A stretch of 64,000 bases of DNA from Pseudogemmobacter lacusdianii (GTDB lineage Bacteria; Pseudomonadota; Alphaproteobacteria; Rhodobacterales; Rhodobacteraceae). The stretch spans positions 1-64,000 of the forward strand of contig NZ_JAVDBT010000016.1 of NCBI RefSeq assembly GCF_030848395.1. The letters are read 5' to 3'. Position numbers and translations under genes: made by a program. Numbering within the stretch: position 1 is the stretch's first letter; every line of letters starts with the position of its first letter. Under the pieces are notes generated by a model. It did not search any database and was not told the origin of the DNA. It saw nothing but the letters and a program-made list of their open reading frames with translations. Shown here one piece after another: positions 41,157 through 61,446 of the stretch.

Positions 41157-41210
41157 CTTACTTTATCCTGTCTTGCCGAAGCACGCGCTTAGCCGTTGAA
41201 TGGCACACAG

Positions 41211-41230: not shown

Positions 41231-41251
41231 CTGGCCGCTAAAGGGCAGCGC

Positions 41252-44784: not shown

Positions 44785-44855
44785 CGGGTTTTGACCTTTT
44801 TCGGGGCCGCAGGGCGGCCGGATTTCAGGAAGGCAAGGACAAGGAAATGCGGCAT
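44781..44855 (-). CDS. 24-residue micro-ORF coupled between phnI and phnJ
   Basis: An ATG at 44855 shares its A with the phnI stop (TGATG). The frame of 24 residues (MPHFLVLAFLKSG, then a basic tail RPAAPKKVKTR) ends in a TGA that overlaps the phnJ ATG (ATGA). The gap between phnI and phnJ is thus filled exactly by a coupled frame with a hydrophobic start and a cationic end. It may be a real microprotein or only a translational bridge to phnJ. I know no family. Confidence 0.45.
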   Translation of the reverse strand: MPHFLVLAFLKSGRPAAPKKVKTR

Positions 44856-46985: not shown

Positions 46986-47008
46986 TTGTCCTCGACAAGA
47001 TTTCGGAC

Positions 47009-47028
47009 TTGTCTAGATAACTAGACAA
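47009..47028. promoter_or_regulatory. PhnF operator candidate
   Basis: TTGTCTAG-ATAA-CTAGACAA is a perfect 8-4-8 inverted repeat in the divergent phnG/phnF gap. GTCTAG/CTAGAC half sites fit the GntR/HutC family operators (GTxTAGAC). It could give local repression of phnGHIJKLN and autoregulation of phnF. Confidence 0.7.
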
Positions 47029-47094
47029 CTATACAAATCCATAAAGGCCCGCCGCTTCGGCCTCAACGCTTTTGTTGTGAAATTTTGGTGACAG

Positions 47095-47814
47095 ATGAGT
47101 CGCACTCCGATCTGGCAAAGCATCCATGCCACGCTTTCGGCCGAGATCGCCGAAGGGATCTACCCCCCCGGCACCCGCCTGCCGACCGAGGCCGAACTGG
47201 CCAGCCGCTTTGGCGTCAACCGCCACACCGTGCGCCATGCGCTGGCGGCTCTGGCTGAGGGAGGTTTGGTCAGCAGCCGCCGGGGTGCGGGGGTTTTCGT
47301 CACCGCAAGGCCAACAGATTACCCGCTGGGCCGCCGGGTGCGGTTTCACCAAAACGTGGAAGCCACCGGGCGCACGCCCTCGCGCAGATTGACGCTGCTC
47401 GAGACCCGCCCGGCTTCGACAAAAGAGGCCGAGGCTTTGGCCTTGCCCCCAGCGGCCCCGGTGCATGTGGTTGAGGGCCTGTCGCTGGTTGATGGCCAGC
47501 CCGTCGCGCATTTCCGCTCGGTCCTTGATGCCGGGCGGTTCCCCGAGCTTTTGCGCCATCTGGCGCAGACCCCTTCCCTGACCGCCGCGCTTAAGGCTTG
47601 CGGGTTGGAGGATTACACCCGGAAGGAAACTCGGCTGACGGCGAAACTCGCCACCCCATTGCAAGCGCTGCATTTGCAACTGAAAGAGGGCGCGCCAATC
47701 CTGCGCTCGGTCGCGATCAATGCCGATGCGGCGGGGGTGCCGGTGGAATATGGGTCAACATGGTTTGCGGGGGATCGGGTGACCCTGACCGTCTCGCCCG
47801 AGGGGGCAGGCTGA
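47095..47814 (+). CDS. phnF: GntR/HutC-family phosphonate regulator PhnF
   Basis: A 239-residue regulator. N-terminal winged helix: IWQSIHATLSAEIAEGIYPPG, LPTEAELASRFGVNRHTVRHAL and SRRGAGVFV. C-terminal UTRA ligand domain: SRRLTLLETRPAS, VEGLSLVDGQPVAHF and PVEYGSTWFAGDRVTLTV. The HutC-type with UTRA next to phnG identifies PhnF. It likely represses the divergent operon unless a phosphonate-pathway ligand or free effector is present. Start ATG at 47095 has no strong ribosome site. Confidence 0.92.
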   Translation: MSRTPIWQSIHATLSAEIAEGIYPPGTRLPTEAELASRFGVNRHTVRHALAALAEGGLVSSRRGAGVFVTARPTDYPLGRRVRFHQNVEATGRTPSRRLTLLETRPASTKEAEALALPPAAPVHVVEGLSLVDGQPVAHFRSVLDAGRFPELLRHLAQTPSLTAALKACGLEDYTRKETRLTAKLATPLQALHLQLKEGAPILRSVAINADAAGVPVEYGSTWFAGDRVTLTVSPEGAG

Positions 47815-47833
47815 CGGTCAGGGTGTGGCGGGA

Positions 47834-48451
47834 TTAGCCGCTGTATTTTTCCAAGAAAGCCTCGGCCTTCAGCTGACGGAAATCCGTCAAAGCCGCCTGC
47901 AGGCGGGTGTGATCCCACTCCCACCACGCCAAGGCCAGCATCCGCTCGGCCACGTTGGGGGTAAAGCGCGCCCGGATCGGCACCGCTGGAACGCCTGCCA
48001 TAATCATATAGGGCGGCACATCCTTGGTGACGATCGCGCCCGAGGCAATGACCGCGCCGGTGCCGATGGTGACATCGGGCTTCACGATCACCCCATGCCC
48101 CAGCCAAGTGTCCACGCCAATCACCGTGCGGCGGCTGCTGCGACGGGCGAAGAACTCTGCGTCATCCGCCTCGCCTTCCCAATAATAGGAGGAGCGATAA
48201 AGGAAGTGGTGCAGGCTGGCGTGATCCATCGGATGATCGGTCGGCCCGATCCGGCACATCGAGGCGATATTGGCGAATTTGCCGATATGGCTGTTGGCGA
48301 TATCGCAAAGCCGGCCGCAATAGGCGTAATCGTCAAAGCGGCTGTTCAGGATCACGCTCTGCTCGCCAAGCTCGACCCAAGCGCCGCAGCTGGAATTCTC
48401 CAGCTGCACGCCCGGATGGATCAAGGGCTGATCTGAGGATAATTTGGTCAT
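47834..48451 (-). CDS. Hexapeptide-repeat acetyltransferase of phosphonate operons (TIGR03308 type)
   Basis: A 205-residue left-handed beta-helix acyltransferase, similar to chloramphenicol/virginiamycin acetyltransferases. Segments: NSRFDDYAYCGRLCDIANSHIGKFANIA, RIGPTDHPMDHASLHHF, VIGVDTWLGHGVIVKPDVTIGTGAVIASGAIVTKDVPPY (hexads, shown in part) and IMAGVPAVPIRARF. The catalytic His of the xenobiotic-acetyltransferase type is probably in DHPMDH. Members of this subfamily occur in phn operons but their acceptor is uncertain. PhnO-like aminophosphonate acetylation is one option. Starts at 48451, overlapping the phnE2 stop by 4 nt. Confidence 0.87.
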   Translation of the reverse strand: MTKLSSDQPLIHPGVQLENSSCGAWVELGEQSVILNSRFDDYAYCGRLCDIANSHIGKFANIASMCRIGPTDHPMDHASLHHFLYRSSYYWEGEADDAEFFARRSSRRTVIGVDTWLGHGVIVKPDVTIGTGAVIASGAIVTKDVPPYMIMAGVPAVPIRARFTPNVAERMLALAWWEWDHTRLQAALTDFRQLKAEAFLEKYSG

Positions 48452-49788
48452 GCGTTGCCCTTGATCAATTTGCGGCGCAACCAGCCCGAGAAGCTGTCCA
48501 TCGCCATCACGGTCAGCACGATCAAGACCATGTAATAGGCCACATCTTCCCAATCTTTCTGGGTCTGGATCGCTTGCGTCAGCAAAAGGCCGATGCCGCC
48601 GCCAACGATTGCGCCGATCACGGTGGCGCCACGGGTGTTGGATTCAAGGAAGTACAGCACTTGGCTCAAAAGCACCGGAGCGACCTGCGGCAGCACGCCG
48701 AAGCGGGCACGTTGCACAGTATTGGCGCCGGTAGAGCGGATGCCCTCGACCTGCTTTTCGTCAATGTTTTCCAACGCTTCCGAGAAGGTCTTACCAAAGC
48801 TGCCAGTGTCGGTCAGCAAGATCGCCAAAGCCCCGGTCATCGGCCCCGGACCAAAGGCACGGGCCAGCACGATGGTCCAGATCAAGCCATCAACGCCGCG
48901 GATGAAGTCAAACACCCGGCGCAGCGCAAAGCGCAGGCTGGCAAAGGGCATCATGTTGCGTGCAGCCATAAAGGCCAAAGGCAAGGCCACAAGGGCAGCG
49001 CCAAAGGTGCCAAGGAAGGCCATCAGCACGGTCTCGAACATCGCCCAAGCGACATCCCCGTGCCGCCACATCGAATTGGTCCAGAAGTCGTGCAACACGG
49101 CCGAAATGTTCGACCGCTCCGCCTCGACCCGCTCTCCCCAAAGCACCGAGGCGGCGATCTCAGGCCAGCTCATATAGTGGAACGGGCTTTCGATGCCGAA
49201 GAAGAACAAAGCCCAGCCTGCTTGATACTTGAGGGTCTCGGCCTTGGCGCGGGTGTAGGAGAACCGCCCGGCATCGGTGGTGACGCTGACGCGGGACTCG
49301 CTGGCGCTGATCCACTCGGGCAGCGGCTGCGGCGCATCAAGCGTCACCCCATCCGCCGTCTGGGTGATCACGATATCGCCGTAGCCCGGCACCTCATAGC
49401 GCGCGCCACCGTCGAAATAGGTGATCAAATGGCCATTCCCAAGGTCAACCTTGGTGCCATCGCTGGTCTCGCTGACCCATTCGGGCAGATAGCCCGCCGG
49501 ATAGGTGCCCTTGCCCTCACCATCGATGGCAATGCTTACCACGCCCGAGCGGTTGTTGCGGGTGACATGGGTCTTATGCTGCCAGAAGTCCGACATCAGG
49601 ATGGCGGCATTGTCCATCCGCGCGCGGCTTGCCAGCCCCGGCAGATCAAAGGCCATTGCGCTATAGATCAGATAGGCCAGCACGATCAGCGGCAAGAGCA
49701 TCGCCTTCATCTTGCGCCGGGCAAATTGTGCGGTGACGCTTTGGGCAAGGCTTGGGGAAACCGAAGGGTTCAGGGTGGTGGTGGTCAT
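48448..49788 (-). CDS. phnE: Phosphonate ABC transporter permease PhnE2 with a large periplasmic insert
   Basis: A 446-residue permease, about 160 residues longer than ordinary PhnE. After the first helix (~29-46, LLPLIVLAYLIYSAMAF) a soluble, beta-rich segment of ~140 residues (about 55-195, with WVSETSDGTKVDLGNGHLI and GYGDIVITQTADGVTL) lies outside the membrane. The C-terminal ~240 residues are a standard PhnE core with GALAILLTDTGSFGKTFSEALENID and RSTGANTVQRARFGVLPQVAPV (EAA loop). It probably forms a heterodimer with PhnE1, whose gene is 3 nt upstream. Confidence 0.9.
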   Translation of the reverse strand: MTTTTLNPSVSPSLAQSVTAQFARRKMKAMLLPLIVLAYLIYSAMAFDLPGLASRARMDNAAILMSDFWQHKTHVTRNNRSGVVSIAIDGEGKGTYPAGYLPEWVSETSDGTKVDLGNGHLITYFDGGARYEVPGYGDIVITQTADGVTLDAPQPLPEWISASESRVSVTTDAGRFSYTRAKAETLKYQAGWALFFFGIESPFHYMSWPEIAASVLWGERVEAERSNISAVLHDFWTNSMWRHGDVAWAMFETVLMAFLGTFGAALVALPLAFMAARNMMPFASLRFALRRVFDFIRGVDGLIWTIVLARAFGPGPMTGALAILLTDTGSFGKTFSEALENIDEKQVEGIRSTGANTVQRARFGVLPQVAPVLLSQVLYFLESNTRGATVIGAIVGGGIGLLLTQAIQTQKDWEDVAYYMVLIVLTVMAMDSFSGWLRRKLIKGNA

Positions 49789-49791
49789 GAT

Positions 49792-50667
49792 TTATCCCTT
49801 TACCAGACGCGCGCGGGCATTGTCGGACAGGCGGTCAATCACCGCGATGGCAAGGAAGAGCAGCAAGAAGATCGCAACCACTTGATCGTAGCGGCCAAGG
49901 CCCCATTGCATGGCGATCTTTAGATCATAACCAATGCCGCCCGAACCCACGAAGCCAAGGATCGCCGAGGCGCGGACGTTGATCTCAAGCCGCATCAAGC
50001 CATAGGACAGCCAGTTCGGTGCGACCTGCGGCAAGATGCCAAGCCCCATCCGCTGCATCCAATTGGCCCCGACCGAGGTCAGCCCTTCGACGGGCTTCAT
50101 GTCGGAATTCTCAGCCGCTTCGGAGAAAAGCTTGCCCAAAGCCCCGGTGGTGTGAATGGCAATGGCGATGACCGCAGGCACCGGGCCAGGGCCAAGGATA
50201 TAGATCAAGATCAATGCGATCACGATCTCAGGCACAGCGCGGCTGGCATCCATGATACGGCGCAAAACCGGCGTCAGGCGCGGCCAAGGCGAAAGGCCGG
50301 GCGAGGACAAAAGCGCCATAATCACGGCCAGCGCGCCGCCAATCAGGGTGGATACCGCTGCAATATTCAGCGTCTCGATCAGCGAGGGCAGATAGGACCA
50401 GAAAAGGCCCGGCAGATTGGCGCGCTTTTCCCAAGCCTCGGCCACCACTTCAGAAGGAAAGGCAAAGACCATCGGCAGGCCCGAGAAGAACCCTCCGGCG
50501 TTGCGCTCTTCGGCCAGATGAAAGCCCGAGGCCATCGTGGCGATGAAGAACACCAAAAGGATCGTGCCATAGAGCCGGCGGCGCCGGGTCAATTCCATGT
50601 AATGCGCAGCCGGATCGTCGGCTTTCGGTCTTGGTCCCGGCTCAGGCCCGAAGGCGATATCTACCAT
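49792..50667 (-). CDS. phnE: Phosphonate ABC transporter permease PhnE1
   Basis: A 291-residue permease with first helix at about 35-52 (YGTILLVFFIATMASGF) and the PhnE core: TLIGGALAVIMALLSSPGL, RAVPEIVIALILIYILGPGPVPAVIAIAIHTTGALGKLFSEA (in part) and VEGLTSVGANWMQRMGLGILPQV. AAGGAG lies ahead of the ATG at 50667. A terminator-like hairpin (50705-50738) separates it from phnD, which should lower permease expression relative to the binding protein. Confidence 0.92.
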   Translation of the reverse strand: MVDIAFGPEPGPRPKADDPAAHYMELTRRRRLYGTILLVFFIATMASGFHLAEERNAGGFFSGLPMVFAFPSEVVAEAWEKRANLPGLFWSYLPSLIETLNIAAVSTLIGGALAVIMALLSSPGLSPWPRLTPVLRRIMDASRAVPEIVIALILIYILGPGPVPAVIAIAIHTTGALGKLFSEAAENSDMKPVEGLTSVGANWMQRMGLGILPQVAPNWLSYGLMRLEINVRASAILGFVGSGGIGYDLKIAMQWGLGRYDQVVAIFLLLFLAIAVIDRLSDNARARLVKG

Positions 50668-50704
50668 GAAGGCTCTCCTTGCCCGGCCAGGGCCGTAGGC
50701 ATGT

Positions 50705-50738
50705 AAAAAAGCGCCGCGCCCCTTGGGGACACGGCGCT
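50705..50738 (-). terminator. Partial terminator between phnD and phnE1
   Basis: AGCGCCG (50710-50716) pairs with CGGCGCT (50732-50738), with inner CCC/GGG pairing. On the minus strand it is followed by T6. It lies 15 nt past phnD inside the operon, so it should stop part of the transcripts. Confidence 0.75.
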
Positions 50739-50752
50739 CTTAGGCTGGGAAA

Positions 50753-51652
50753 TTATTGGCTGGCTTCTTGCAGCTTGCGTGCGGCGATCACGCCCAGATA
50801 TTCGTCGTGGCCAACCTCGACGAAGTCCTTGGCTTCACCGGCAGCAACGCTATAGGCGCAGGCCTTGTCGGTCTCGTGCAGGTCAGCGGTCAGTTGGGTG
50901 ACTTTGGCCTTCACGTCTTCCGGAAGTGCCTTGCGGACAACCATCGGGCCTTCCGGGATCAGCTTGGACTTCCAGATCTCTACGAGATCATTCATCTCGA
51001 CCAGACCGGAATCCGCGGCTTTGCGGAAGGCGCCCGAGTTGTAGCCGTCTTCCCAGTTGCCCAGACCATCGGCCCAGCTGACGCCTGCGTCCACATCGCC
51101 ATTGGCGACAGCAACGATGGTCTGCTCATGGCCGCCCGAGAATTTCACTTCCGAGAAGAATTCTTCAAGGTTGCCAAGGGTTTCGGTCAGTTCAGCTGCC
51201 GGCACCAGATAGCCCGAGGTCGAATTCGGCTCGGCGAAGGCAAAGCCTTTGCCTTTGGCCTCTTCGATCGAGGTGATGCCCGAGTCTTTATGGGCAAAGC
51301 CGAAGGCGTAGTAGCCGGTCGAGCCGTCCATGTTTTGCTTGGTCAACTTCACTTCAACGGCTTCAGCGTCGGTCAGGTAGATTTTGGCATAGCCCGAAGC
51401 GCCCAGCCAAGCCATGTCCAAGGTGCCGCCCAAGAGGCCCTGGATCACGCCGTCATAATCGGCGGGGGTGAAGACCTTGACCGGCACACCCAGCTCTTTT
51501 TCAATCGCCACGCGGTAGCATTCGCTCGAGGTCATGCGGTCTTGCGCATTCTCGCCGCCAAGGATGCCGATGTTGAAGCCGGTGATGCCTTGCGCCGAAG
51601 CAGCCGAGGTCAGCGCGGTGGTGGCCGCAAGGGCCAGAACGATCTGTTTCAT
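50753..51652 (-). CDS. phnD: Phosphonate ABC transporter substrate-binding protein PhnD
   Basis: A 299-residue periplasmic binding protein with signal peptide (MKQIVLALAATTALTSAASA-Q). Features: FNIGILGGENAQDRM, YDGVIQGLLGGTLDMAWLGASGYAKIYL (TDMAW-like ligand box), YAFGFAHKDSGI, GKGFAFAEPNSTSGYLVPAAEL (split) and SGGHEQTIVAVANGDVDAGVSWADGL. The STSG ligand segment of PhnD is present. It would capture phosphonates with high affinity for PhnCE. GGAGACGTT precedes the ATG. Confidence 0.93.
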   Translation of the reverse strand: MKQIVLALAATTALTSAASAQGITGFNIGILGGENAQDRMTSSECYRVAIEKELGVPVKVFTPADYDGVIQGLLGGTLDMAWLGASGYAKIYLTDAEAVEVKLTKQNMDGSTGYYAFGFAHKDSGITSIEEAKGKGFAFAEPNSTSGYLVPAAELTETLGNLEEFFSEVKFSGGHEQTIVAVANGDVDAGVSWADGLGNWEDGYNSGAFRKAADSGLVEMNDLVEIWKSKLIPEGPMVVRKALPEDVKAKVTQLTADLHETDKACAYSVAAGEAKDFVEVGHDEYLGVIAARKLQEASQ

Positions 51653-51718
51653 AACGTCTCCGTCGGTGGAAAAAGGCCGCCCCCCCCGTTCCGGGGCAAG
51701 GCGGGCCGGGGGAAAGGG

Positions 51719-52537
51719 TTAAGCCATCATCTGATCGGCATAGGCCTGATCGGGGATGTGATCTTGCGGGATCGAGGTCGAGGTCGCGGCCTCGTTAAAG
51801 CTCTCATCCGCGCCATAGATGTCGCGGGCCACGCCGGTCGAAAGTTGCGACGGCACGCCGTCAAACACGATGCGACCATCGCGCATGCCGATCACCCGGT
51901 CGCAATAGCGCCGCGCAGTGTCCAAAGTGTGCAGGTTGGCGATGACCATCCGCCCGTCTTCGGTGTTGATCCGCTTCAGCGTGTCCATCACCACTTGGGC
52001 GTTCATCGGGTCAAGCGAGGCAATCGGTTCATCAGCAAGGATGATCTTGGGGTCTTGCATCAGCGCCCGCGCAATCGCCACGCGCTGCTGCTGCCCGCCC
52101 GACAGAGCCTCGGCCCGCTTCGGGGCCTGCTCGGCGATGCCCAGCCGGTCAAGGATCTCAAGCGCGCGCAAGATATCGCTGCGGGGCCAGAGGTTGAAGA
52201 AAGTGGTCAAGGTCGAACGGCGATTGAGCAGCCCATGCAGCACGTTCGAGGCCACATCCAAGCGTGGCACCAGATTGAACTGCTGGAAGATCATCGCGCA
52301 TTGGCTTTGCCATTCGCGGCGCTGCGCGCCTTGCAGGGCAAGGATGTTCTGGCCATCCACCTCAATCGCACCCGAGCTGGCATCGGTCAGCCGGTTCATC
52401 ATCCGCAGAACGGTCGACTTGCCCGCACCCGAGCGCCCGATGATCCCGACAAAGGCCGGCCCGTCAATGCGGAAGTTGATCTGATCCACCGCAGTGCGGT
52501 TGCCGAAAATCTTGGTGACGTTCTGAACGCGAAGCAA
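51719..52537 (-). CDS. phnC: Phosphonate ABC transporter ATPase PhnC
   Basis: A 272-residue ATPase. Walker [10 protein letters not shown] (33-41), Q-loop [20 protein letters not shown], signature LSGGQQQRV, Walker [13 protein letters not shown] and [15 protein letters not shown], where the H-loop is of the PhnC type (NLHxL). The frame has only a TTG start (52537) behind GGGAGA. An ATG at 52544 is in another frame. First gene of the phnCDE1E2-acetyltransferase operon, with a Pho-box-like site 63 nt upstream. Confidence 0.93.
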
Positions 52538-52673: not shown

Positions 52674-54230
52674 TTATACCCGGTCCGGCGACTTTCGGAT
52701 CACCTTGCCTGAGGCGGAGAACCGGGTCGGAGAGGTCGGCGTCAGCACAATCCGACAGGGCGCGCCGAAGGCTTGGAACACGGCGGCCTCCAAGCCCTTT
52801 ACCTCAGGCTCGGCCGCCGCTGTGCTGTGAAGATAAATCACCAATGCTGCGCGGCCGTCGGGGCCTTCTTCCAGAACCGACACCACGTCTTTGCTTGTGC
52901 AGCCGGTCGTTTCGCGCAGCAATTGGTCGATATCATCAAGGTTGATCATCCGTCCATTCACCTTGGCCGCATGATCGCCTCGACCAACGACGAAGAGCTG
53001 CTGGCTGCGGAGAAACCCGATATCCCCGGTGTCATAGAGCGGCTGGGCGGTTTTCGGATGGGCAAAGGTTGCAAGGCCCGTGGCCAAGCTTGGGGCCGAG
53101 ACGCAGATGCGCCCCGCCTGCCCCTCTGCGCACAGCTGACCTTCAGGGTCGACGATCGAAACATCGACCCCCGGCAAGGGCGCGCCGCAATCAAGATAGC
53201 CGCCCCCATTATCGGTGCAAATGCCTTCCCGGATGCCACTGCCGATGCTGACACCAAGACCCAGCTCGGCCATACCATAGCTTGGGTGGATCACCCCTTC
53301 GCGGCCCCCCAAACCGAAGCGAGCGATAAACTCTTGCAAGACCTGCGCCTTGATAGGCTCGGCCCCAACACCAATGACACGCAGCTTTGCAAGCGCGGGC
53401 AGTGGGCGGTTCTCGGCCTGCTGGCGCCGGCTGCACAGCTCTAGCCCGAAGGGCGGCACATAGGTGATGCTGGCACCAGTCCGCGCGCAAAGGTCTAGCC
53501 AGTCCAGCGGCGCCCGCAGGAAGGCACGTGGCGAAAGCAGATGCAACTCGATCCCGCTATAGACCGAGCAGAGCAGCATCCCCACAAAGCCCATGTCATG
53601 CGCCAACGGCAGCCAAGAAAGGGCGCAATCGGAGGGGCCAACCTGCAAGCGCGTACAAAGGGCGCGGACGGCATGGTCCAGCGCAGAATGCCCAAGCGCG
53701 ATCGCCTTTGGCTGCGAGGTCGTGCCAGAGGTGAACTGGATAACCGCCAGATCAGCGGCTTCGTGTTGGCGCGGTACAAAGGCCGTGGCCTCTGTCTCAT
53801 CCAGAAGGCTTTGCGATGCGACCAGCTGAACCGAGGCTACAAGCGCAGAGCCGCGCACCATCTCAAGAATGTCGTCATCGGCGATCAGAAGATCCGCCTT
53901 GGCCGCCGCAAGATACTGCGCAAGCCGCTGAACCTCGGCCATGCGGTCCTTGCGCGGATGCGGCTCGGCCAGATTACAAGGCGTGCAACCTGCCGCCTGC
54001 ACCGCAAAAAAGAGGGTGACAAAGTCAGCATCATTGCGCGCGATCAGGGCAACCCGCGCCTGCCGCGGCAGATCAAGCGACACCAAGAGATTGGCCGCCT
54101 GCTCAGCTTTACGCTGCAATCTCGCATAGCTGAGCTTCACGCCCGGCTCGGTCGGACGGTCGTAGAAGGTGATCCCCGTCGCGGTCTGCGCCGCACGGCA
54201 AAGCGCCTGAAAGGCGGTTTCGGCCCCCAT
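52674..54230 (-). CDS. Acyl-adenylate-forming ligase, fatty acyl-AMP ligase (FAAL)-like
   Basis: A 518-residue ANL-superfamily enzyme. Phosphate loop QFTSGTTSQPK (165-175), SWLPLAHDMGFVGMLL (205-220) and LLSPRAFLRAPLDWLDL as in fatty acyl-AMP ligases, adenine motif SYGMAE (317-322), TGD (401-403) and terminal Lys509 (SASGKVIRKS). FAALs load acyl groups on carrier proteins rather than CoA, and a carrier-protein gene lies two genes upstream. It therefore probably adenylates a carboxylic acid for the local ACP. FAAL versus acyl-CoA ligase is not certain by eye. The ATG at 54230 lies 2 nt after the P450 stop. Last gene of the operon. Confidence 0.82.
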   Translation of the reverse strand: MGAETAFQALCRAAQTATGITFYDRPTEPGVKLSYARLQRKAEQAANLLVSLDLPRQARVALIARNDADFVTLFFAVQAAGCTPCNLAEPHPRKDRMAEVQRLAQYLAAAKADLLIADDDILEMVRGSALVASVQLVASQSLLDETEATAFVPRQHEAADLAVIQFTSGTTSQPKAIALGHSALDHAVRALCTRLQVGPSDCALSWLPLAHDMGFVGMLLCSVYSGIELHLLSPRAFLRAPLDWLDLCARTGASITYVPPFGLELCSRRQQAENRPLPALAKLRVIGVGAEPIKAQVLQEFIARFGLGGREGVIHPSYGMAELGLGVSIGSGIREGICTDNGGGYLDCGAPLPGVDVSIVDPEGQLCAEGQAGRICVSAPSLATGLATFAHPKTAQPLYDTGDIGFLRSQQLFVVGRGDHAAKVNGRMINLDDIDQLLRETTGCTSKDVVSVLEEGPDGRAALVIYLHSTAAAEPEVKGLEAAVFQAFGAPCRIVLTPTSPTRFSASGKVIRKSPDRV

Positions 54231-54232
54231 CG

Positions 54233-55405
54233 TCAAAACGCCACGCTTGGAAGCTGCTTCAGCGACAGCGAGAGCCGCCAGTCCAGCGCCCCCAAGGGAC
54301 CCGAGACGATCTTCGGCGCGCTCAGCTCGGCAAACCCCTCGACCGCAGCTTTCAGCATCTGCCGCGCGAAGAGTGCACCGGCGCATACCCTTTCGCCCGC
54401 TCCAAAGGCCAAAAGACGACCAAGCTTATCCTCGGCCAAGACACTGTCGCGGATCCTTGCAATCAGCGTATCGGCATCGGTACCATTCACGCCAAGTAGG
54501 TTGGCGATGACCCGATGACCCGGCGCAAGTACCCTCCCATCCGCAAAGCTAAAATCGCAAAGCGCGCGCCGGGCGACCAAGGGAGTTGCAGGCAGAAAAG
54601 TCAGCGCACCCTCAACAAACCGCGCCGCCGCATTGCCGCCCTCGGCGCGGATACCTTCAGCCAATTCAGGGTGAGACGCGAGCGCGAGCACCATCCAATG
54701 CAATGCAGAGCTTGAAGAATCGACGCCCGCGACGATCAGGTTCAACACCTCAAGATCGACGTTCTCGATCTCGCCGCGCGCCTCGGCTTCGGTGAAGCGC
54801 GCAAAGATCGGCTGCGAGGCAGCATGGCCCTGCCGCAAGCGGCGCAAAGCGTCCAAAGCCTGCTCACGCGCGGCTTTGAAAGCGCGCAGCTGGGCCGCGC
54901 GGGCATCAGGCTCAATCGTTTTGAAATAGTGGTTGGAGACAAAGGTGTTGCGCGACGCCGTATCAGAAAGCAGCATGATCGCGCGCGCATCGATCAGGGG
55001 CAGCTGATCCTGTTCGACGCCAAACTGGACCTCTAAAAACACGTCCAACAGCAACTGATAGAGCGCGGAGTGACAAGGAGCCGGGGGATTGCGCCCTGCC
55101 TCGAAGATCATCCGCGCGACACGGGCTTTGGTTGCAGCGGCAAGCGCGGGGGCTGAAAACTCTTTGAAAAACGTGTCGCTGAGCGCGCGCCGTGCCTGCC
55201 AAGCGAGACCGTTTTCCGTAAAGCGCGACGGTCCAAGGATTTGCCGCATCCACTGCAAGTCTTTTTCCAGCACATGCGAGGGCGCGCGCATGACGGCAAA
55301 GATATCGGCAGGCTTTTGGATCAGCAGGATCTGCTCCCCCTGCATTGTCAGCGGGCGGTTTTCCTGCGGATGGCTCTGCGCGATCTGCAGCAGCTGATCA
55401 AACAT
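54233..55405 (-). CDS. Cytochrome P450 lacking the ExxR motif
   Basis: A 390-residue soluble bacterial-type P450. The heme signature FGAGERVCAG is intact with the Cys ligand at 341. The I-helix is AGVDSSSS (226-233), giving the acidic and Ser/Thr proton-relay residues. In the K-helix, where P450s have ExxR (usually E-A-L-R before a P), this protein has G266-A-L-T269, so both Glu and Arg are gone. Only a few families lack this motif. A role in oxidising an ACP-bound substrate is suggested by overlap with the ACP gene (8 nt) and by the downstream ligase. No redox partner is encoded in the window. Confidence 0.87.
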   Translation of the reverse strand: MFDQLLQIAQSHPQENRPLTMQGEQILLIQKPADIFAVMRAPSHVLEKDLQWMRQILGPSRFTENGLAWQARRALSDTFFKEFSAPALAAATKARVARMIFEAGRNPPAPCHSALYQLLLDVFLEVQFGVEQDQLPLIDARAIMLLSDTASRNTFVSNHYFKTIEPDARAAQLRAFKAAREQALDALRRLRQGHAASQPIFARFTEAEARGEIENVDLEVLNLIVAGVDSSSSALHWMVLALASHPELAEGIRAEGGNAAARFVEGALTFLPATPLVARRALCDFSFADGRVLAPGHRVIANLLGVNGTDADTLIARIRDSVLAEDKLGRLLAFGAGERVCAGALFARQMLKAAVEGFAELSAPKIVSGPLGALDWRLSLSLKQLPSVAF

Positions 55406-55676
55406 CCGCGCCTGTCACCAAAGCAAAAATATCGTTCACAGTGGTGCAACGATATAGCGCATCGAGGTTCAGGATCTGCCCGGTCAAATCTTCGATCTCC
55501 AGCGTGATCAACTCGATCGCCAGACTGTCGATCGTTGCCCGGTCGCGCAGATCCTCATCCATCGACAAAGCGCCTTTGGGCAAGGCAAGGCAGCGGCATA
55601 TCGCATCACGCAGCTTCTCGGGCGTGAGAGCTTTGCGTGGGTTGGGCGCGGCAAAATGGATCGGCTGCGAGGTCAT
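55398..55676 (-). CDS. Acyl carrier protein-like
   Basis: A 92-residue carrier protein. The phosphopantetheine Ser is S51 in ATIDSLAIELITLEIED, preceded by a helix (LRDAICRCLALPKG) and followed by a recognition helix and YRCTTVNDIFALV, giving the four-helix ACP/PCP pattern. The D-S-L motif is intact. ATG at 55676; the longer frame upstream is in the antisense of the GNAT gene. It is 7 nt after the GNAT stop and overlaps the P450 gene. No condensing enzymes are nearby, so it looks like a discrete tether for substrate modification, not a polyketide line. Confidence 0.82.
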   Translation of the reverse strand: MTSQPIHFAAPNPRKALTPEKLRDAICRCLALPKGALSMDEDLRDRATIDSLAIELITLEIEDLTGQILNLDALYRCTTVNDIFALVTGADV

Positions 55677-55683
55677 AAATGGC

Positions 55684-56223
55684 TTACTTCGGTTCAGGGA
55701 AAAGCGCGTAAAGCAAGATATCGTCGCGTTTGCCGTTCGGCGTGAGCACCTCACTGCGCAAAACGCCTTCCAATTGGAACTTCGACTGATCGGCGTAAAG
55801 CCGGGCGGCTGCATTCGCGCGATTGATCCGCAGCTTCACCTTTGCCACCCCCATCCGCTTGAAAAGATGGCGCATCAGAACGCGGCTGGCGTTCAGCAAA
55901 AGCTCTGCTCGATCCTGCAAGGCGCGATCCATAGCCAAATCGAAATCGGCCAATTTATGCGTCTTGTCGAACCGGACCTTCAGATAGCAGTTCAGCCCGA
56001 GATTGGCTGCATCCGCGATGGTCAGAAGAAGGAAGCCCTCATCCCGGCATTGCTCGATATGGCGCATATGGTCGAAGAGGGTGAAAGCACGGGTGCTGAT
56101 GTTCAATCCGCGCTTCACATAATCGCTGTTGAACCAAGCAAGATATGCGTCGGTGAGGTCGGAAACCTCCAAGGTTCGAACAACAAATCCACCGGCGAAT
56201 GGGAGCGAAATCTTATGTGTCAT
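55684..56223 (-). CDS. GNAT-family N-acetyltransferase (RimJ/RimL-like)
   Basis: A 179-residue acyltransferase. It starts with VRTLEVSDLTDAYLAWFNSDYVKRG, the RimJ-like opening. The CoA/ACP-binding region is around LNASRVLMRHLFKRMGVAKVKLRINRANAAARLY (family pattern N..A..LY), and FQLEGVLR follows. It could acylate an amine of a substrate, perhaps using acyl-ACP. First gene of the operon GNAT-ACP-P450-ligase. ATG at 56223, weak ribosome site. A TTG at 56235 is the alternative. A 9-bp inverted repeat lies just upstream (56231-56260). Confidence 0.8.
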   Translation of the reverse strand: MTHKISLPFAGGFVVRTLEVSDLTDAYLAWFNSDYVKRGLNISTRAFTLFDHMRHIEQCRDEGFLLLTIADAANLGLNCYLKVRFDKTHKLADFDLAMDRALQDRAELLLNASRVLMRHLFKRMGVAKVKLRINRANAAARLYADQSKFQLEGVLRSEVLTPNGKRDDILLYALFPEPK

Positions 56224-56230
56224 ACGGACG

Positions 56231-56260
56231 GTCAAGCGACAGGAAGCCCCATCGCTTGAC
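56231..56260. promoter_or_regulatory. Inverted repeat upstream of the GNAT-ACP-P450-ligase operon
   Basis: GTCAAGCGA (56231-56239) and TCGCTTGAC (56252-56260) with a 12-nt loop. It lies between the end of the barrel-protein gene and the GNAT start, so it may be a terminator without U-tract, an operator or a 5'-leader hairpin. Confidence 0.5.
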
Positions 56261-56272
56261 CTACCTCTTTCA

Positions 56273-56977
56273 TCAGAAGCGGTAATTCACACCGATCTTG
56301 ACCTGACGAGAGTCGCCAGATTGATCGAATGACGCTTCCTGGGGCACATCTTCGCCGTCCACCCAATGTTCTGTGTAGTGCCCAATACTATCAAAGCTGT
56401 AGCGGTTGATCTCCGCGAAGATCGAAAGGTTCGGTTGCAGATAGTGCTCCACCCCCAGACCAGTAACGGTCGCCTTACCGCTGTTCGAATGCTCCTCCAG
56501 ATCCACATCTTCTTCGTCTAAGACGACCCAGTTTTCACCCAGCTTACCATTCGCACGCCCCACAGAGCCGTAGAAGAGCGTTGTTTCGCCGAGCACGTAG
56601 CCCCCGCGCAATTTCAAAGTTGCGAGGCTTTTCAAGGAATCTTGCGAGTCCGACAGCGTGTCGAAGTCAGCAATGGCGCCGATCACAAAGTTGCCGTAGC
56701 GCTTATCGTAACCGACCCGAACCCCATAGGATTTGCTTTTCACCCCGTAATAGGGTGGCCAGCCCTCATCGCAATCGTCTCCAGGAAAGCAATTCTTGTC
56801 GAAATCGCTGTTGACGTGCGAGAACGTACCACCAGCATAGAAACCATCAAAGGTCACGCCGGAGGCGATGGATGAGGCGCTTCCGACTGGAGCGACAGGC
56901 GTTCCATCTTGGGCAGCGACCAGGCTGGCAGATCCAAAGGTCAGCGCCACTGCCAATGCAGCAAGTTTTGTATTCAT
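56273..56977 (-). CDS. Outer-membrane beta-barrel protein (OMP_b-brl type)
   Basis: A 234-residue exported protein with signal peptide (MNTKLAALAVALTFGSASLVAA). The mature part is eight-strand-barrel like: FYAGGTFSHVNSDF, YGVRVGYDKRYGNFVIGAIADFD, LATLKLRGGYVLGETTLFYGSVG (in part) and QVKIGVNYRF, ending in a C-terminal Phe. A loop with CFPGDDCDEG holds two Cys and many acids. Function is unknown; opacity/OmpW-like proteins are relatives by pattern. Same strand as the GNAT operon and 49 nt upstream of it, so read-through is possible. Confidence 0.8.
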   Translation of the reverse strand: MNTKLAALAVALTFGSASLVAAQDGTPVAPVGSASSIASGVTFDGFYAGGTFSHVNSDFDKNCFPGDDCDEGWPPYYGVKSKSYGVRVGYDKRYGNFVIGAIADFDTLSDSQDSLKSLATLKLRGGYVLGETTLFYGSVGRANGKLGENWVVLDEEDVDLEEHSNSGKATVTGLGVEHYLQPNLSIFAEINRYSFDSIGHYTEHWVDGEDVPQEASFDQSGDSRQVKIGVNYRF

Positions 56978-57589: not shown

Positions 57590-58633
57590 GTGACCATACC
57601 GCTGTCTTTTCCGGTCGCCACCCCGCCCGATCTTTCCGGGGTAGAGCCCGACATGAAGGTGGGCTTCCTGCTCGCCCCACGCTTCACGCTGATCGCCTTG
57701 TCCTCTTTCGTAGATAGCCTGCGCCATGCCGGTGACGAGGCCGATTTCAGCCGTCAAATCTATTGCGCATGGCAGATTTTATCCGAGACCCCGGGCCAGA
57801 GTGTTGCTTCCTCGAGTGGCATCGAGGTTGTACCAAGCACAGCCCTGTCGCAGGCCGGTGACATCACCCATCTGGTGGTCGTTGGCGGGCTTTTACCTGA
57901 TTGCTACCATTTCGATCCGCCGACCCTGCAGTTCATTCGCGATGCCTACGCTCGAGGGGTCAGCATTGTCGGCCTCTGTACCGGCAGCTTCCTTCTGGCT
58001 GAATTGGGTCTGTTAGAGGGACGGCGCTGCGCGGTCCATAATGAGCATATTTCGGCGTTTCGCACGCTTTACCCTAAGGCGCTTGCGACGGCGGATGATC
58101 TCTACGTCTCGGACCGCGGTGTATTCACCTGTCAGGGCGGGACATCGGCCTTGGAGCTGGCCTTTCACCTGATCGATATCCACTGCGGCAAAGCGCGGGC
58201 GACGAAGGCGATCAACTCTCTGTTGATGCAGGGAAAATTCAACCACAGTCACCGCTTTCGCCCGCATGGGCATATGGCTGCATGCGGCAATCGTAAGGTG
58301 GAGCAGGCCGTTGAGATCATGGAGCGCCATTTGATCTCTCCGATGCCGATCACCGATGTGGCCCGCAGCGTTGGCTGCTCGACCCGCGAATTGTCGCGGC
58401 TGTTCCAAAAATATGGGGGGCAGACGCCAAGCGAGACCTGGCGCCGCATGCGCGTTGCGCATGGCCATTGGATGCTCCTGAACACCGAACGGAGCATCAC
58501 TCAGATCGCTTACGAATGCGGTTTTGCCGATTCCGCCCATTTCACGCGCTGTTTTAAAGACATCTATAAGACGCCCCCCAATGCCTATCGCATCATGCGG
58601 CGCGTGACGCCAAACACCACGATTTCTGGCTAA
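57590..58633 (+). CDS. GlxA-type AraC regulator with an N-terminal DJ-1/PfpI domain
   Basis: A 347-residue regulator. The N-terminal DJ-1/PfpI-like sensor (about 20-195) has VGFLLAPRFTLIALSSFVDSLRHA, GLLPDCYHFD and IVGLCTGSFLLAELGLLEGR with the elbow Cys. The C-terminal AraC HTH domain has PITDVARSVGCSTRELSRLFQKYGG and ITQIAYECGFADSAHFTRCFKDIYKTPPNAYR (second HTH). GlxA-type regulators often activate catabolism of choline, carnitine, arginine and related nitrogen compounds. It lies just upstream of an amino-acid ABC transporter operon and near sarcosine oxidase genes. Start is GTG at 57590 behind GGGGAAGAT. Confidence 0.9.
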   Translation: MTIPLSFPVATPPDLSGVEPDMKVGFLLAPRFTLIALSSFVDSLRHAGDEADFSRQIYCAWQILSETPGQSVASSSGIEVVPSTALSQAGDITHLVVVGGLLPDCYHFDPPTLQFIRDAYARGVSIVGLCTGSFLLAELGLLEGRRCAVHNEHISAFRTLYPKALATADDLYVSDRGVFTCQGGTSALELAFHLIDIHCGKARATKAINSLLMQGKFNHSHRFRPHGHMAACGNRKVEQAVEIMERHLISPMPITDVARSVGCSTRELSRLFQKYGGQTPSETWRRMRVAHGHWMLLNTERSITQIAYECGFADSAHFTRCFKDIYKTPPNAYRIMRRVTPNTTISG

Positions 58634-58743
58634 AGCTGGGCCACTTGGTCAGGACCGCAGGTCGCTCAGCCAGGCTGTCAGAAGCCCGCAGAAACGCGAA
58701 CCTGCCATCACACGCCCATAATCATCACGAGAGGATAGCGAGC

Positions 58744-58771
58744 CCCCGACTGGCAAGCCCCGACTGGCAAG
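58744..58771. repeat. Tandem duplication of a 14-nt unit
   Basis: Two head-to-tail copies of CCCCGACTGGCAAG in the leader region ahead of the ABC binding-protein gene. Probably a slippage product; a regulatory role is not shown. Confidence 0.8.
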
Positions 58772-58917
58772 CGCCGAGAGGACGCGATGTGCAGAACCAC
58801 GAAAAAATTGCGCCCCTCCGTTCAAAATTTCATCTGGAACGTTCAAGTCGCCGAACAACCTCTGCGCCAGACTACCTCAAAACCAACACCACACTGATAA
58901 CAATCGGGGAGAATAAA

Positions 58918-59817
58918 ATGCCGATCATGTCCAAAGTCCGCAGCAGCGCAAAGGCTGCAATTCTTGGCGCCGCTGCGCTGAGTTTCGCTCAGGCCGCGGC
59001 CGCAGCTGGCACCTGTGAAGGCGCCGAGCTGGTCGAGGATGGCAAGCTGGTCGTTGCCTATAACGGCGATATGCCCGGCACCGGCACCAAAGACGGCAAA
59101 CTCGTCGGGATCGACGGCGAGATCATGGGCATCGTCGCCGAGCGTCTCGGCCTCGAGATTTCTCCCCAGCTGATGGAATGGGCAGCCGAGATTGAATCGG
59201 TGAAATCGCGCCGCGTCGACATCATGCATGGCATGATGGGCTGGACCCAACCGCGCACCGAAGTCATCACGATGACCGACCCGATCTACTACGCTGGCTC
59301 GCTCATGACCCAGCGCAAAGGCGCAAATATCACCAGCTTCGATCAGCTGAAAGATCTGCGCGTTGCGACGGTACAAGGCTTTGCCCAAGCGACCGAGCTT
59401 GCGATCATCCATCCCGATGTCGTGCTTTACGAAACCGGCGATGCTGCCGTGCGCGATCTGGTCTCTGGCCGCGTGGACGTGATCTTCCTTGATCCGCCGA
59501 TGATGCAATATCTGAAGATCGCTCAGCCCGAGCTTGAGATCGAATCGATCCCCGTCACCGAACCCTTCGATCCCGAACTGGCCGTTATCACTGGCAAATT
59601 CATGGTCGTCTTCGGCATGTCGAAAGAAGCGCCGAAGCTGGAGAAATGCATCAACGACATCATCGCCGATCTGTGGGCGAACTGTGAGAACCTGAAAGTG
59701 GCAGCCACCTACGGCTTTGACGACAAGTTCTGGTTCACCCCGCAAGAGGCGAACCCGCGTCCGGGCGTTGACCGTCCGCAAGACTGGGCCTACCCGGCGC
59801 TTGGCGCCTGCAGCTAA
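58918..59817 (+). CDS. Polar amino-acid ABC transporter substrate-binding protein (family 3)
   Basis: A 299-residue periplasmic protein. Signal peptide: VRSSAKAAILGAAALSFAQAAAAAG. Family-3 segments: LVVAYNGDMPGTGTKDG, GIDGEIMGIVAERLGL, SVKSRRVDIMHGMMGWTQPR, VITMTDPIYYAGSLM, VATVQGFAQATELA and DLVSGRVDVIFLDPPMM. It differs from typical His/Gln proteins by GMMGWT in place of the MTIT box, so the ligand may not be a common amino acid. GGGGAGA lies before the ATG at 58918. First gene of an SBP-ATPase-permease-permease operon. Confidence 0.87.
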   Translation: MPIMSKVRSSAKAAILGAAALSFAQAAAAAGTCEGAELVEDGKLVVAYNGDMPGTGTKDGKLVGIDGEIMGIVAERLGLEISPQLMEWAAEIESVKSRRVDIMHGMMGWTQPRTEVITMTDPIYYAGSLMTQRKGANITSFDQLKDLRVATVQGFAQATELAIIHPDVVLYETGDAAVRDLVSGRVDVIFLDPPMMQYLKIAQPELEIESIPVTEPFDPELAVITGKFMVVFGMSKEAPKLEKCINDIIADLWANCENLKVAATYGFDDKFWFTPQEANPRPGVDRPQDWAYPALGACS

Positions 59818-60003
59818 GCAAATCTGACCCGTACCGGCCAAATCCGGTGCAACGGATCAGGGGCGGCGCGCCCGCGCGCCGCCCTCGCCCATTCGACCCG
59901 ACCGCTGAAAAACGCCTGCAAAAGACTTGGCCAGCGGACGCATGTCTCCCCAATGAATGGGAACGGGCAAATTCACGTCAACAGGTGCGACTTCGGGGTA
60001 AAG

Positions 60004-60777
60004 ATGACCGAGAACAAAGAATTGCTGCGGATTGAGGGCTTGAGGAAAGACTTCGGCACCCTGCAAGTGCTGAAAGACATCAGCCTGTCTGTCGGGCAGA
60101 GCAAGAAAGTGGCCCTGATCGGCCCTTCTGGTTCCGGCAAAACCACGCTTTTGCGCTGCATCAACCATCTCGAAAGCCCCACTGGCGGGCATATCTATCT
60201 CGATGGGGATCTGATTGGCGAAGAGAAGCGCGGCGTTCGCTATGTGCGCAGCTCAGCCGCGCGCTTGGCCCGTCAGCGGTTGGACATGGGGTTCGTGTTC
60301 CAAAACTTCTACCTCTGGCCGCATTTGACCGTGCAAGAGAATGTCGCGCTTTGCCCTTGGAAAGTGCAGGGCAAAAGCCAGAAAGAGGCAATGGATCTGG
60401 CCGAAGCCATGCTGGAAAAGGTCCATATGGCGCATAAGCGCAAAGAATATCCCGAAAGGCTCTCAGGCGGGCAGCAGCAGCGCGTAGGCATTGCCCGCGC
60501 CTTGGCCCAGCAACCCAAGATCATCCTCTTTGATGAGCCGACCTCCGCCTTGGACCCCGAGCTGGTGGGCGAGGTGTTGGGCGTTATCCAAGAGCTCGCC
60601 GCCGAAGGCCGCTCGATGGTTCTGGTGACGCATGAAATCCGCTTTGCGCGTGACGTGGCCGATGAGGTCGTCTTCATGGATGGCGGCCTTGTGGTCGAAA
60701 AGGGCGCGCCGGCTGATGTGATCGACAACCCATCGAATGAGCGCACCATCCGCTTCCTTGGCCAGTTGCGGGGCTGA
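60004..60777 (+). CDS. Polar amino-acid ABC transporter ATP-binding protein
   Basis: A 257-residue ATPase of the GlnQ/HisP class. Walker A IGPSGSGKTT (~38-47), Q-loop VFQNFYLWPHLTV, signature LSGGQQQRV, Walker B ILFDEPTSALDPE and VTHEIRFARDV. The ATG at 60004 is chosen because family sequence (LLRIEGLRKDFG) starts right after it. The frame is open to 59953 without family similarity. It follows the binding-protein gene after a 186-bp gap. Confidence 0.9.
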   Translation: MTENKELLRIEGLRKDFGTLQVLKDISLSVGQSKKVALIGPSGSGKTTLLRCINHLESPTGGHIYLDGDLIGEEKRGVRYVRSSAARLARQRLDMGFVFQNFYLWPHLTVQENVALCPWKVQGKSQKEAMDLAEAMLEKVHMAHKRKEYPERLSGGQQQRVGIARALAQQPKIILFDEPTSALDPELVGEVLGVIQELAAEGRSMVLVTHEIRFARDVADEVVFMDGGLVVEKGAPADVIDNPSNERTIRFLGQLRG

Positions 60778-60780
60778 TCG

Positions 60781-61446
60781 ATGGAACAATTCGGCGATTT
60801 ATTCACGCGCTCTGCAAGCCATCTTGAGGTTTTGCTGCAAGGCGCCGGCGTGACGGTGATGATCACCCTTGGCAGCTTCGTCATGGCGGTGACCATCGGG
60901 CTGGTGCTGGCTGTGGCGCGCACTTGGAAGATCCGGCCGCTGAATGCGTTGATTGCGATCTATGTCGAGGTCTTTCGGGGCCTTCCGACACTGACATTGC
61001 TCTTCATCTGCTATTTCGGCCTGACCTATGTTGGCATCAAGCTGAACCCGCTGCCTGCCGCGATCATCGGCCTTGGCCTTTCGGGTGGCGCCTATTGCAC
61101 CGAGATCTTCCGGTCCGGCATTTCGGCCCTTCACCACGGCCAGCGCGAAGCGGCAGCGGCCATTGGCATGACGCCGATGCGGGCGATGCGGTTCGTGATT
61201 TTGCCACAGGCTTTGCGCATCACCCTGCCCCCCTTGGGCAACTATGCGATCGGATTGATCAAGGACACCGCCGTCGCCTCGGCAGTGGCTGCGCCTGAGA
61301 TCTTGTTCCGCGCCCGGAACCTTTCGACGGAGACCTTCGACACGGCGCTGATCTACCTGCTGGTTGCGGTTCTCTACCTTGTTATGACCTTCCCGCTTGC
61401 GCGCTGGGTCGACCATCTTGAGAAGAAGCGGAAGGCCTGGCAATGA
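60781..61446 (+). CDS. Polar amino-acid ABC transporter permease
   Basis: A 221-residue permease with landmarks TVMITLGSFVMAVTIGLVLA, IAIYVEVFRGLPTLTLLFICYFGLTYVG (in part), GGAYCTEIFRSGISALHHGQREAAAAIGMTP (EAA loop) and the second-half helices. It lies 3 nt after the ATPase stop and overlaps the next permease gene by 4 nt. It would form a heterodimer with that product. Confidence 0.88.
   Translation: MEQFGDLFTRSASHLEVLLQGAGVTVMITLGSFVMAVTIGLVLAVARTWKIRPLNALIAIYVEVFRGLPTLTLLFICYFGLTYVGIKLNPLPAAIIGLGLSGGAYCTEIFRSGISALHHGQREAAAAIGMTPMRAMRFVILPQALRITLPPLGNYAIGLIKDTAVASAVAAPEILFRARNLSTETFDTALIYLLVAVLYLVMTFPLARWVDHLEKKRKAWQ

What the first reader, a model, noticed from the sequence alone, without database searches (positions are those of the whole stretch)
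52674..56223. Compact GNAT-ACP-P450-FAAL-like operon of unknown product
Four genes on one strand with overlaps or gaps under 10 nt encode an acyltransferase, a discrete carrier protein with an intact DSL site, a P450 and an ANL ligase with FAAL-like boxes. This is the toolkit for activating an acid onto a carrier, oxidising it there and transferring it to an amine. No ketosynthase, thioesterase or NRPS condensation domain is present, so a known cluster type is not obvious. It lies between phosphonate uptake genes and an outer-membrane protein gene.
Basis: partly seen in the sequence, partly recalled or inferred. Interest (0 to 1): 0.8.

Follow-up and report, generated by a model that had tools for sequence, protein, structure and literature searches.

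The report
Acyl-transfer cassette linked to autotransporters
Four tightly packed genes form a rare, recurring cassette that probably loads a fatty acid on a carrier protein, oxidises it and hands it to an amine; elsewhere it sits beside a surface autotransporter protein, hinting at an undescribed way to modify outer-membrane proteins.

Summary
In detail: GNAT-fold protein, ACP with intact DSL serine, P450 and ANL ligase lie on the minus strand at 52674-56223, with gaps of 7 and 2 nt and an 8-nt overlap. The ligase is FAAL-like (pocket-blocking Trp, Met, Phe and FAAL helix kept; insertion short). The set is not a chance line-up: homologues of all four genes, some cut by contig ends, stand together in 7 of 8 related loci from six organisms of four families; the eighth keeps a FAAL remnant. 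In 5 of these 8 a classical autotransporter lies beside the cassette; the other three are Budvicia contigs that break at the GNAT. A Pfam scan of 23 other FAAL loci found none. One locus has GNAT copies on both sides of the autotransporter. In the window an outer-membrane beta-barrel gene takes that place, 49 nt upstream. Best reading (45%): ACP-dependent acyl modification of an autotransporter or outer-membrane protein, working like HlyC-type acylation. A small-molecule product is the main rival. The window copy is the outlier (23-33% identity) and its P450 has lost ExxR, so oxidation here is doubtful. Acyl group and acceptor are untested.

The parts
55684..56223 (-). GNAT-fold (RimL-like) putative acyltransferase, 179 aa, first gene of the four
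   Evidence: Translation; AF2 pLDDT 82.8, nearest folds PA3270, SpeG, RimL; 23-28% identical to the cassette GNATs
55398..55676 (-). Acyl carrier protein, 92 aa; phosphopantetheine site DSL, Ser51 at 55524-55526
   Evidence: PF00550 29 bits; DSL invariant in the 3 ACPs aligned
54233..55405 (-). Cytochrome P450, 390 aa; heme loop FGAGERVCAG (Cys341, 54383-54385) present
   Evidence: PF00067 over cut-off; best relatives found by full-length similarity are cassette P450s
54599..54610 (-). K-helix position of the P450 ExxR motif, here GALT
   Evidence: Alignment; ExxR in the 7 other rows
52674..54230 (-). FAAL-type fatty acyl-AMP ligase, 518 aa; W206, M213, F261 match EcFAAL pocket-blocking residues
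   Evidence: residues named in PMC8460268 (passages)
56230..56261 (-). Strong 14-bp stem-loop between the OMP stop and the GNAT start, no U tail
   Evidence: RNA fold of 56215-56290: -33 kcal/mol, z -4.7, 0 of 200 shuffles as stable
56273..56977 (-). Outer-membrane beta-barrel protein (OMP_b-brl), 234 aa, 49 nt upstream of GNAT, same strand; candidate partner or acceptor
   Evidence: PF13505 45.3 bits; stands where other cassettes have the autotransporter; that it belongs to the unit is inferred

Best explanation
The four genes are a divergent copy of a rare acyl-transfer cassette. The FAAL adenylates a fatty acid and loads it on the dedicated ACP; in the other cassettes the P450 probably oxidises the acyl chain on the ACP; the GNAT-fold enzyme moves the acyl group from the ACP to an amine. 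The most likely amine lies on the outer-membrane protein encoded next door: the autotransporter in the other cassettes (a shared, rare lysine is a candidate), the OMP beta-barrel in the window, modified in the cytoplasm before export. Shown: the gene set, its recurrence, FAAL-type residues, the ACP site, the autotransporter linkage. Inferred: every reaction, the acyl chain and the acceptor. In the window the oxidation step is doubtful because the P450 lacks ExxR.
For: All four genes (some cut by contig ends) in 7 of 8 loci found with the P450 alignment; the eighth (Budvicia L105) holds a FAAL remnant, and in L108 the P450 match stops at residue 165. GNAT profile and P450 present in the same 2 of 178 family genomes (both queries contain those genomes' own rows). 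Autotransporter beta-domain beside the cassette in 5 of 8 loci, the other 3 being Budvicia contigs that start at or inside the GNAT; passengers homologous. Control: no PF03797 at E up to 1e-15 in the C-terminal 300 residues of 73 open frames of 500 or more residues from 23 other FAAL loci; the five cassette autotransporters score 1e-29 to 3e-62. Second GNAT on the far side of the autotransporter in Stenotrophomonas SY1. A distant GNAT lies 4 nt from an outer-membrane beta-barrel gene in Mesorhizobium AR02. Pocket residues and FAAL helix. GNAT fold near RimL, a protein acetyltransferase. HlyC-type GNAT-fold enzymes lack CoA elements and pass acyl from ACP to lysine (PMC8339906 passages).
Against: No acceptor is shown. 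The window genome has two autotransporters, neither similar to the linked ones by tblastn. Passengers are lysine-poor, 3-15 per 600-740 aa in the four long ones, and the shared lysine has no control set (plasmid search empty). The CoA-loop argument is weak: the window and SY1 GNATs have no glycine where RimL and SpeG read QGxG, but the Lysobacteraceae one reads LGRGV, and RimL itself fails the exact pattern I used, so CoA use is not excluded. Grouping of the window FAAL with cassette FAALs has support only 56/86. EcFAAL loci also carry a gene annotated N-acetyltransferase (YghO-like) beside FAAL and ACP without an autotransporter, though without similarity to these GNATs.
Confidence: 0.45

Rival explanations
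1. Small-molecule cassette: FAAL, ACP and P450 make an oxidised acyl-ACP and the GNAT transfers it to a free amine (amino acid, polyamine, amino sugar), giving an N-acyl lipid or signal; the autotransporter binds, displays or senses it.
For: FAAL genes are often found in natural-product clusters (PMC11837247 section 3.1); ten papers hold FAAL, P450 and ACP together, several on natural-product clusters such as polyynes (listing only); GNAT fold hits include SpeG and PseH, which acylate small amines; P450 model nearest to fatty-acid hydroxylases CYP4B1 and BM3, weak model, pLDDT 70, TM about 0.6.
Against: The neighbour seen again and again is an autotransporter, and a second GNAT flanks it in one genome. 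Other neighbours were not compared systematically, except that a SapC-family gene recurs in two loci.
Confidence: 0.3
2. The window copy is a drifting or retargeted relic: it came with the cassette lineage, lost its autotransporter and P450 activity, and does little or something else now.
For: ExxR replaced by GALT, unusual A8 region and the shortest post-YGxAE stretch of the FAAL rows, 25 residues, very long branch, 23-33% identity to cassettes that are 37-95% alike, P450 found in 1 of 13 genus genomes, its own.
Against: All four frames are open, with GC3 0.67-0.71 above GC2 0.36-0.49 and tight spacing; heme Cys, DSL Ser and the A10 Lys are kept; P450s without ExxR exist (CYP157; PMC3599690 passages).
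Confidence: 0.2
3. Unrelated genes that happen to be adjacent.
For: Gene order differs between the window, the main form and Ochrobactrum.
Against: Same families together in four bacterial families, and exact co-occurrence of P450 and GNAT in 2 of 178 genomes.
Confidence: 0.03

Closest known systems
EcFAAL locus (FAAL, epimerase, ACP, aminotransferase/AONS, near yghO)
   Same: FAAL of the PRK09192 group with its own small ACP; YghO beside it is annotated N-acetyltransferase in Klebsiella
   Different: YghO-like protein has no similarity to the cassette GNATs (best E 0.43); no cassette-type P450 or GNAT in the 23 FAAL loci compared
HlyC/ApxIC-type toxin-activating lysine acyltransferases
   Same: GNAT fold, acyl-ACP donor, exported protein as target (PMC8339906 passages)
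   Different: Pfam gives no HlyC match to P0004 or P0005; the linked exported protein is type V, not type I; dedicated FAAL, ACP and P450
RimL-type protein N-acetyltransferase and SpeG
   Same: Near solved folds, TM up to 0.83 for RimL
   Different: 14-21% identity; QGxG loop replaced in the window and SY1 GNATs; carried with an ACP and FAAL
Alkyne/polyyne and beta-hydroxylation cassettes with on-carrier oxidation (JamABC, caryoynencin-type, NovI/NikQ; recalled, listing only)
   Same: Acid activated on a carrier and oxidised there
   Different: No desaturase, PKS or NRPS in the four genes; a GNAT-fold protein is the likely transfer step
Autotransporter glycosylation (TibC on TibA; PMC10450907 passages; gene adjacency recalled)
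   Same: A dedicated enzyme modifies an autotransporter
   Different: Glycosylation, not acylation

Membership tests
Fatty acyl-AMP ligase (FAAL) | Pocket-blocking Trp, Met, Phe (EcFAAL W224, M231, F279) | tested here: met
   W206, M213, F261 aligned; residues named in PMC8460268
Fatty acyl-AMP ligase (FAAL) | FAAL-specific helix at the pocket entrance (EcFAAL 252-258) | tested here: met
   Segment aligned without gap in the window and cassette rows; FadD has a 3-residue gap there
Fatty acyl-AMP ligase (FAAL) | FAAL-specific insertion | tested here: inconclusive
   Residues between YGxAE and the next CG (or its equivalent): window 25, cassettes 28-40, EcFAAL 45, FadD and EntE 19
Fatty acyl-AMP ligase (FAAL) | Groups with FAALs, apart from FadD and two own-genome ligases | tested here: met
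   Tree of 45 rows, FACL group one side of a branch, 98* (quick method; long-branch caution for the window row)
Fatty acyl-AMP ligase (FAAL) | Loads holo-ACP and rejects CoA | not testable with these tools
   Needs enzyme assay
Cytochrome P450 | Heme-thiolate loop with Cys | tested here: met
   FGAGERVCAG
Cytochrome P450 | K-helix ExxR (usual, not absolute: CYP157 lacks it) | tested here: not met
   GALT in the window; ExxR in 7 of 7 other cassette P450s
GNAT superfamily | GNAT fold | tested here: met
   AF2 model and Foldseek, 405 PDB matches at E up to 0.001; Pfam score under cut-off
GNAT superfamily | CoA pyrophosphate loop (Q/RxxGxG/A, recalled) | tested here: inconclusive
   0 of 9 GNATs match [QR]..G.[GA], but of two controls SpeG matches and RimL does not; in the alignment the window has no glycine there, Lysobacteraceae has LGRGV
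HlyC-type toxin acyltransferase | Sequence family match | tested here: not met
   No HlyC family among Pfam hits at E up to 1 for P0004 and P0005
HlyC-type toxin acyltransferase | Acyl-ACP to lysine transfer | not testable with these tools
   Needs assay; an ACP gene is adjacent
Acyl carrier protein | DSL serine in a PP-binding domain | tested here: met
   PF00550 over cut-off; DSL in 3 of 3 ACPs aligned
PKS/NRPS biosynthetic cluster | Ketosynthase or condensation domain nearby | tested here: not met
   Not among Pfam hits of the four genes or of ten neighbouring proteins

The most novel reading that the evidence does not exclude
A dedicated protein-acylation system for type V secretion: a FAAL, ACP and P450 make an oxidised fatty acyl group and a GNAT-fold transferase attaches it to a lysine of a neighbouring autotransporter passenger (or, in the window, an outer-membrane barrel) before export, giving lipid-modified surface adhesins.
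Probability: 0.33. Interest if true: 0.85.

Novelty: new variant of a known kind. Interest (0 to 1): 0.62.

Why it matters
FAALs are known mainly as starters of lipopeptide and polyketide assembly. A small FAAL-ACP-P450-GNAT set whose steady partner is an autotransporter would move this chemistry into surface-protein modification. No report of acylated autotransporters was seen in the listings (of the four papers only one was opened, for passages). The work gives named organisms, a short gene list and a clear protein candidate with which the idea can be tested directly.

Tried and rejected
Searches that gave nothing: FAAL 8-mers in genome contigs, P450 8-mers in viral contigs, window GNAT, locus DNA, a cassette ACP and an autotransporter passenger in plasmids, papers with FAAL+P450+ACP+GNAT+cluster. 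Papers with SapC+autotransporter+ACP: two, unrelated by title.

Rejected: a link to phosphonate use (in two of the ten genus loci only 0.9 and 2.7 kb upstream of phnC are held). Rejected as relatives: the six weak GNAT hits of the order (L012-L017), judged RimL-like with ordinary neighbours from their ORF lists only, not by Pfam. Set aside: the P450 of G1183, which lacks the signature; on checking, an ANL ligase domain does lie about 2.4 kb from it (L097 3526-5025, 24-29% to cassette FAALs) with an outer-membrane-type gene between, but no cassette GNAT or ACP was found at E up to 1e-3. OlsB- and FeeM-type N-acyltransferases were considered; neither family is among the Pfam or NCBIfam hits of the GNAT.

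Weak or failed tests: the P450 signature W.RQ.LG.SRF.E.G is in the window and 7 of 7 full cassette P450s, but it is also the stretch from which the scan patterns were made, so for L103-L108 it is shared by construction. My first autotransporter control (tblastn, 0 of 23) and a profile of my own were too blunt: the profile missed 5 of 5 held-out loci. I replaced them by the Pfam scan, which dropped 20 of 93 overlapping frames and would miss autotransporters under 500 aa or weaker than 1e-15. The exact CoA-loop pattern is not diagnostic. The GGK lysine is in 4 of 4 passengers that cover the column, without control passengers.
Full report
What is there. The four genes lie on the minus strand at 52674-56223: GNAT, ACP, P450, ligase in order of transcription, with a 7-nt gap, an 8-nt overlap and a 2-nt gap. 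Upstream, 49 nt before the GNAT start and on the same strand, is an outer-membrane beta-barrel gene; downstream, beyond 136 nt, are phnC, phnD and two phn permease genes. A stem-loop of 14 pairs lies between the OMP stop and the GNAT start, without a U tail.

The ligase. Its best NCBIfam profile is the EcFAAL-type subfamily PRK09192 (316.9 bits, under that model's cut-off of 600) and its best solved relative is EcFAAL 3PBK. The residues that block the CoA pocket in FAALs, named in passages of PMC8460268, are kept, as is the FAAL helix. The stretch that holds the FAAL-specific insertion is short: 25 residues against 28-40 in the cassettes, 45 in EcFAAL and 19 in FadD and EntE. In a quick tree of 45 rows the FACL rows fall apart from the FAALs, the seven cassette FAALs form one group (98*), and the window row is a very long branch among FAALs; with 28 rows the best careful tree puts it with the six cassette rows used, at weak support 56/86.

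The P450. The heme loop and an I-helix AGVDSS are present, but the K-helix ExxR reads GALT. P450s without a full ExxR are known (CYP157; PMC3599690 passages), so it may still fold and bind heme, but oxidation in this genome is not safe to assume. The AF2 model (pLDDT 70.2, 8 sequences) is a P450 fold whose first hits are CYP4B1 and BM3; I use this only as a hint of fatty substrates.

The GNAT. The AF2 model (pLDDT 82.8) is closest to PA3270, SpeG and RimL. Against E. coli RimL and SpeG the CoA loop (QGxG) has no glycine in the window or SY1 protein, but LGRGV in the Lysobacteraceae one. The exact pattern [QR]xxGxG/A is absent in 9 of 9 GNATs, yet RimL lacks it too, so this does not settle the donor. 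An invariant His, Glu, Arg and Asp run through the 9 rows aligned.

Distribution. The P450 is found in 1 of 13 genomes of the genus, 1 of 295 of the family at E up to 1e-10, 1 of 385 of the class at 1e-12 and 3 of 349 of the phylum at 1e-8; in each case one is the window's own genome, and only the best few candidates per genome were scored in the larger searches. The two foreign hits were G973, which carries GNAT, FAAL, ACP and P450 in a row, and G1183, a P450 with an N-terminal extension. The family of G973 gave one more, G1269, with the same four genes. All four genes are found in 7 of 8 (in L106 and L108 the GNAT is cut by the contig edge, in L108 the P450 match ends at residue 165); L105 holds GNAT, ACP and P450 with a FAAL remnant. 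Order is GNAT-FAAL-ACP-P450 except in Ochrobactrum (GNAT-ACP-extra gene-FAAL, P450 divergent) and the window (GNAT-ACP-P450-FAAL). The GNAT profile A7 hits 2 of 178 genomes, the same two that hold the P450; both queries contain those genomes' own rows. The scan uses two short patterns, so six organisms is a lower bound.

The autotransporter. In L101, L102, L103, L104 and L107 a protein with the PF03797 beta-domain is next to the cassette: directly upstream of the GNAT in L101, L102 and L104, upstream with a SapC-family gene between in L103, and beyond the P450 with a SapC-family gene between in L107. The four long ones align with each other at 30-58% identity over their passenger parts; the Lysobacteraceae one lies in two open frames and was compared in pieces. 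The three Budvicia contigs start at or inside the GNAT, so that side is not held; no frame of autotransporter size is listed on their other side, which was not scanned by Pfam. Control: among 23 other FAAL loci (20 from the class, 3 from plasmids; 4-20 kb each) no PF03797 match at E up to 1e-15 was found in the C-terminal 300 residues of 73 of the 93 open frames of 500 or more residues; one TonB-receptor barrel was. Stenotrophomonas SY1 has a second GNAT on the far side of its autotransporter. On a Mesorhizobium AR02 plasmid a distant GNAT (25.9% to P0011) lies next to an outer-membrane beta-barrel gene, convergent and 4 nt apart, and no cassette FAAL or ACP was found in that stretch. The window genome has two autotransporters elsewhere, neither similar to these by tblastn; its cassette stands beside a beta-barrel OMP instead. 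The OMPs of the window and AR02 are only weakly alike (22%).

Mechanism. Shown: gene set, recurrence, FAAL-type residues, carrier site, linkage to autotransporters. Inferred: FAAL loads the ACP, P450 oxidises the chain on it, GNAT transfers the chain to an amine. Why a protein acceptor: the steady neighbour is an exported protein, a second GNAT flanks it in one genome, RimL among the near folds is a protein acetyltransferase, and HlyC-type enzymes show that a GNAT fold can carry acyl from ACP to lysine (PMC8339906 passages). Passengers hold few lysines (3-15 in 600-740 residues in the four long ones) and share one in a VN(I/V)LxGGK stretch in 4 of 4 that cover it; there is no control set. A small-molecule product remains a strong rival.

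The window copy is the outlier. It is 23-28% (GNAT), 23-29% (P450) and 28-33% (FAAL) identical to the others, which are 44-84, 37-92 and 39-95% alike. With the lost ExxR and no linked autotransporter it may be retargeted to the OMP or decaying; open frames and GC3 of 0.67-0.71 speak for coding use.

Known or new. In the held library: FAAL+P450+ACP+GNAT+cluster 0 papers; FAAL+P450+ACP 10, not opened, mostly natural products, reviews or tuberculosis drug targets by title; autotransporter+P450+FAAL 1, unrelated by title; autotransporter+GNAT+ACP+acylation 0; autotransporter+acyltransferase+ACP+fatty acylation 4, one opened for passages; FAAL+autotransporter 4, unrelated by title. The FAAL review PMC11837247 has no mention of P450 or GNAT (term search; section 3.1 read). 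Most subscription papers are not held.

Noticed in passing
window 56230-56261: Very stable 14-bp hairpin between OMP and GNAT without U tail; could be an attenuator, mRNA end or operator.
   Followed up: partly
L105, L106, L108 (Budvicia aquatica): Three cassette copies on three contigs, one with most of the FAAL missing and one with a cut P450; all three contigs start at or inside the GNAT, as repeats upstream would cause.
   Followed up: partly
L103 5454-6452 (+), L107 10343-11008 (-): SapC-family (PF07277) gene beside the autotransporter in both loci (31% identical).
   Followed up: partly
L097 3526-9409: P450 with a long N-terminal extension without Pfam match, near a probable outer-membrane protein gene and an ANL ligase domain in a 743-aa frame.
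   Followed up: partly
L109 9938-11309 (Mesorhizobium sp. AR02 plasmid): Distant cassette-type GNAT convergent with an outer-membrane beta-barrel gene.
   Followed up: yes
window about 40000-52537: C-P lyase and phosphonate uptake genes, 75-79% identical to plasmid-borne phn loci of Paracoccus.
   Followed up: partly
window 15020-16327: Second ANL-type ligase in the window, 30% identical to the FAAL, on the FadD side of the tree.
   Followed up: no
window 57590-62144: DJ-1/AraC-type regulator followed by an ABC transporter operon (solute-binding family 3), divergent from the OMP gene.
   Followed up: no
G000 contig C16 (L112 5163-9977): Large autotransporter with many near-identical repeats, not similar to the cassette passengers.
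   Followed up: no
L107 6837-7760: 307-aa ORF, weak MarR match under cut-off, between ACP and FAAL of the Ochrobactrum cassette.
   Followed up: partly
L009 7087-8211: YghO-like protein annotated N-acetyltransferase beside the EcFAAL-type locus; perhaps an analogous FAAL-ACP-acyltransferase pairing.
   Followed up: partly
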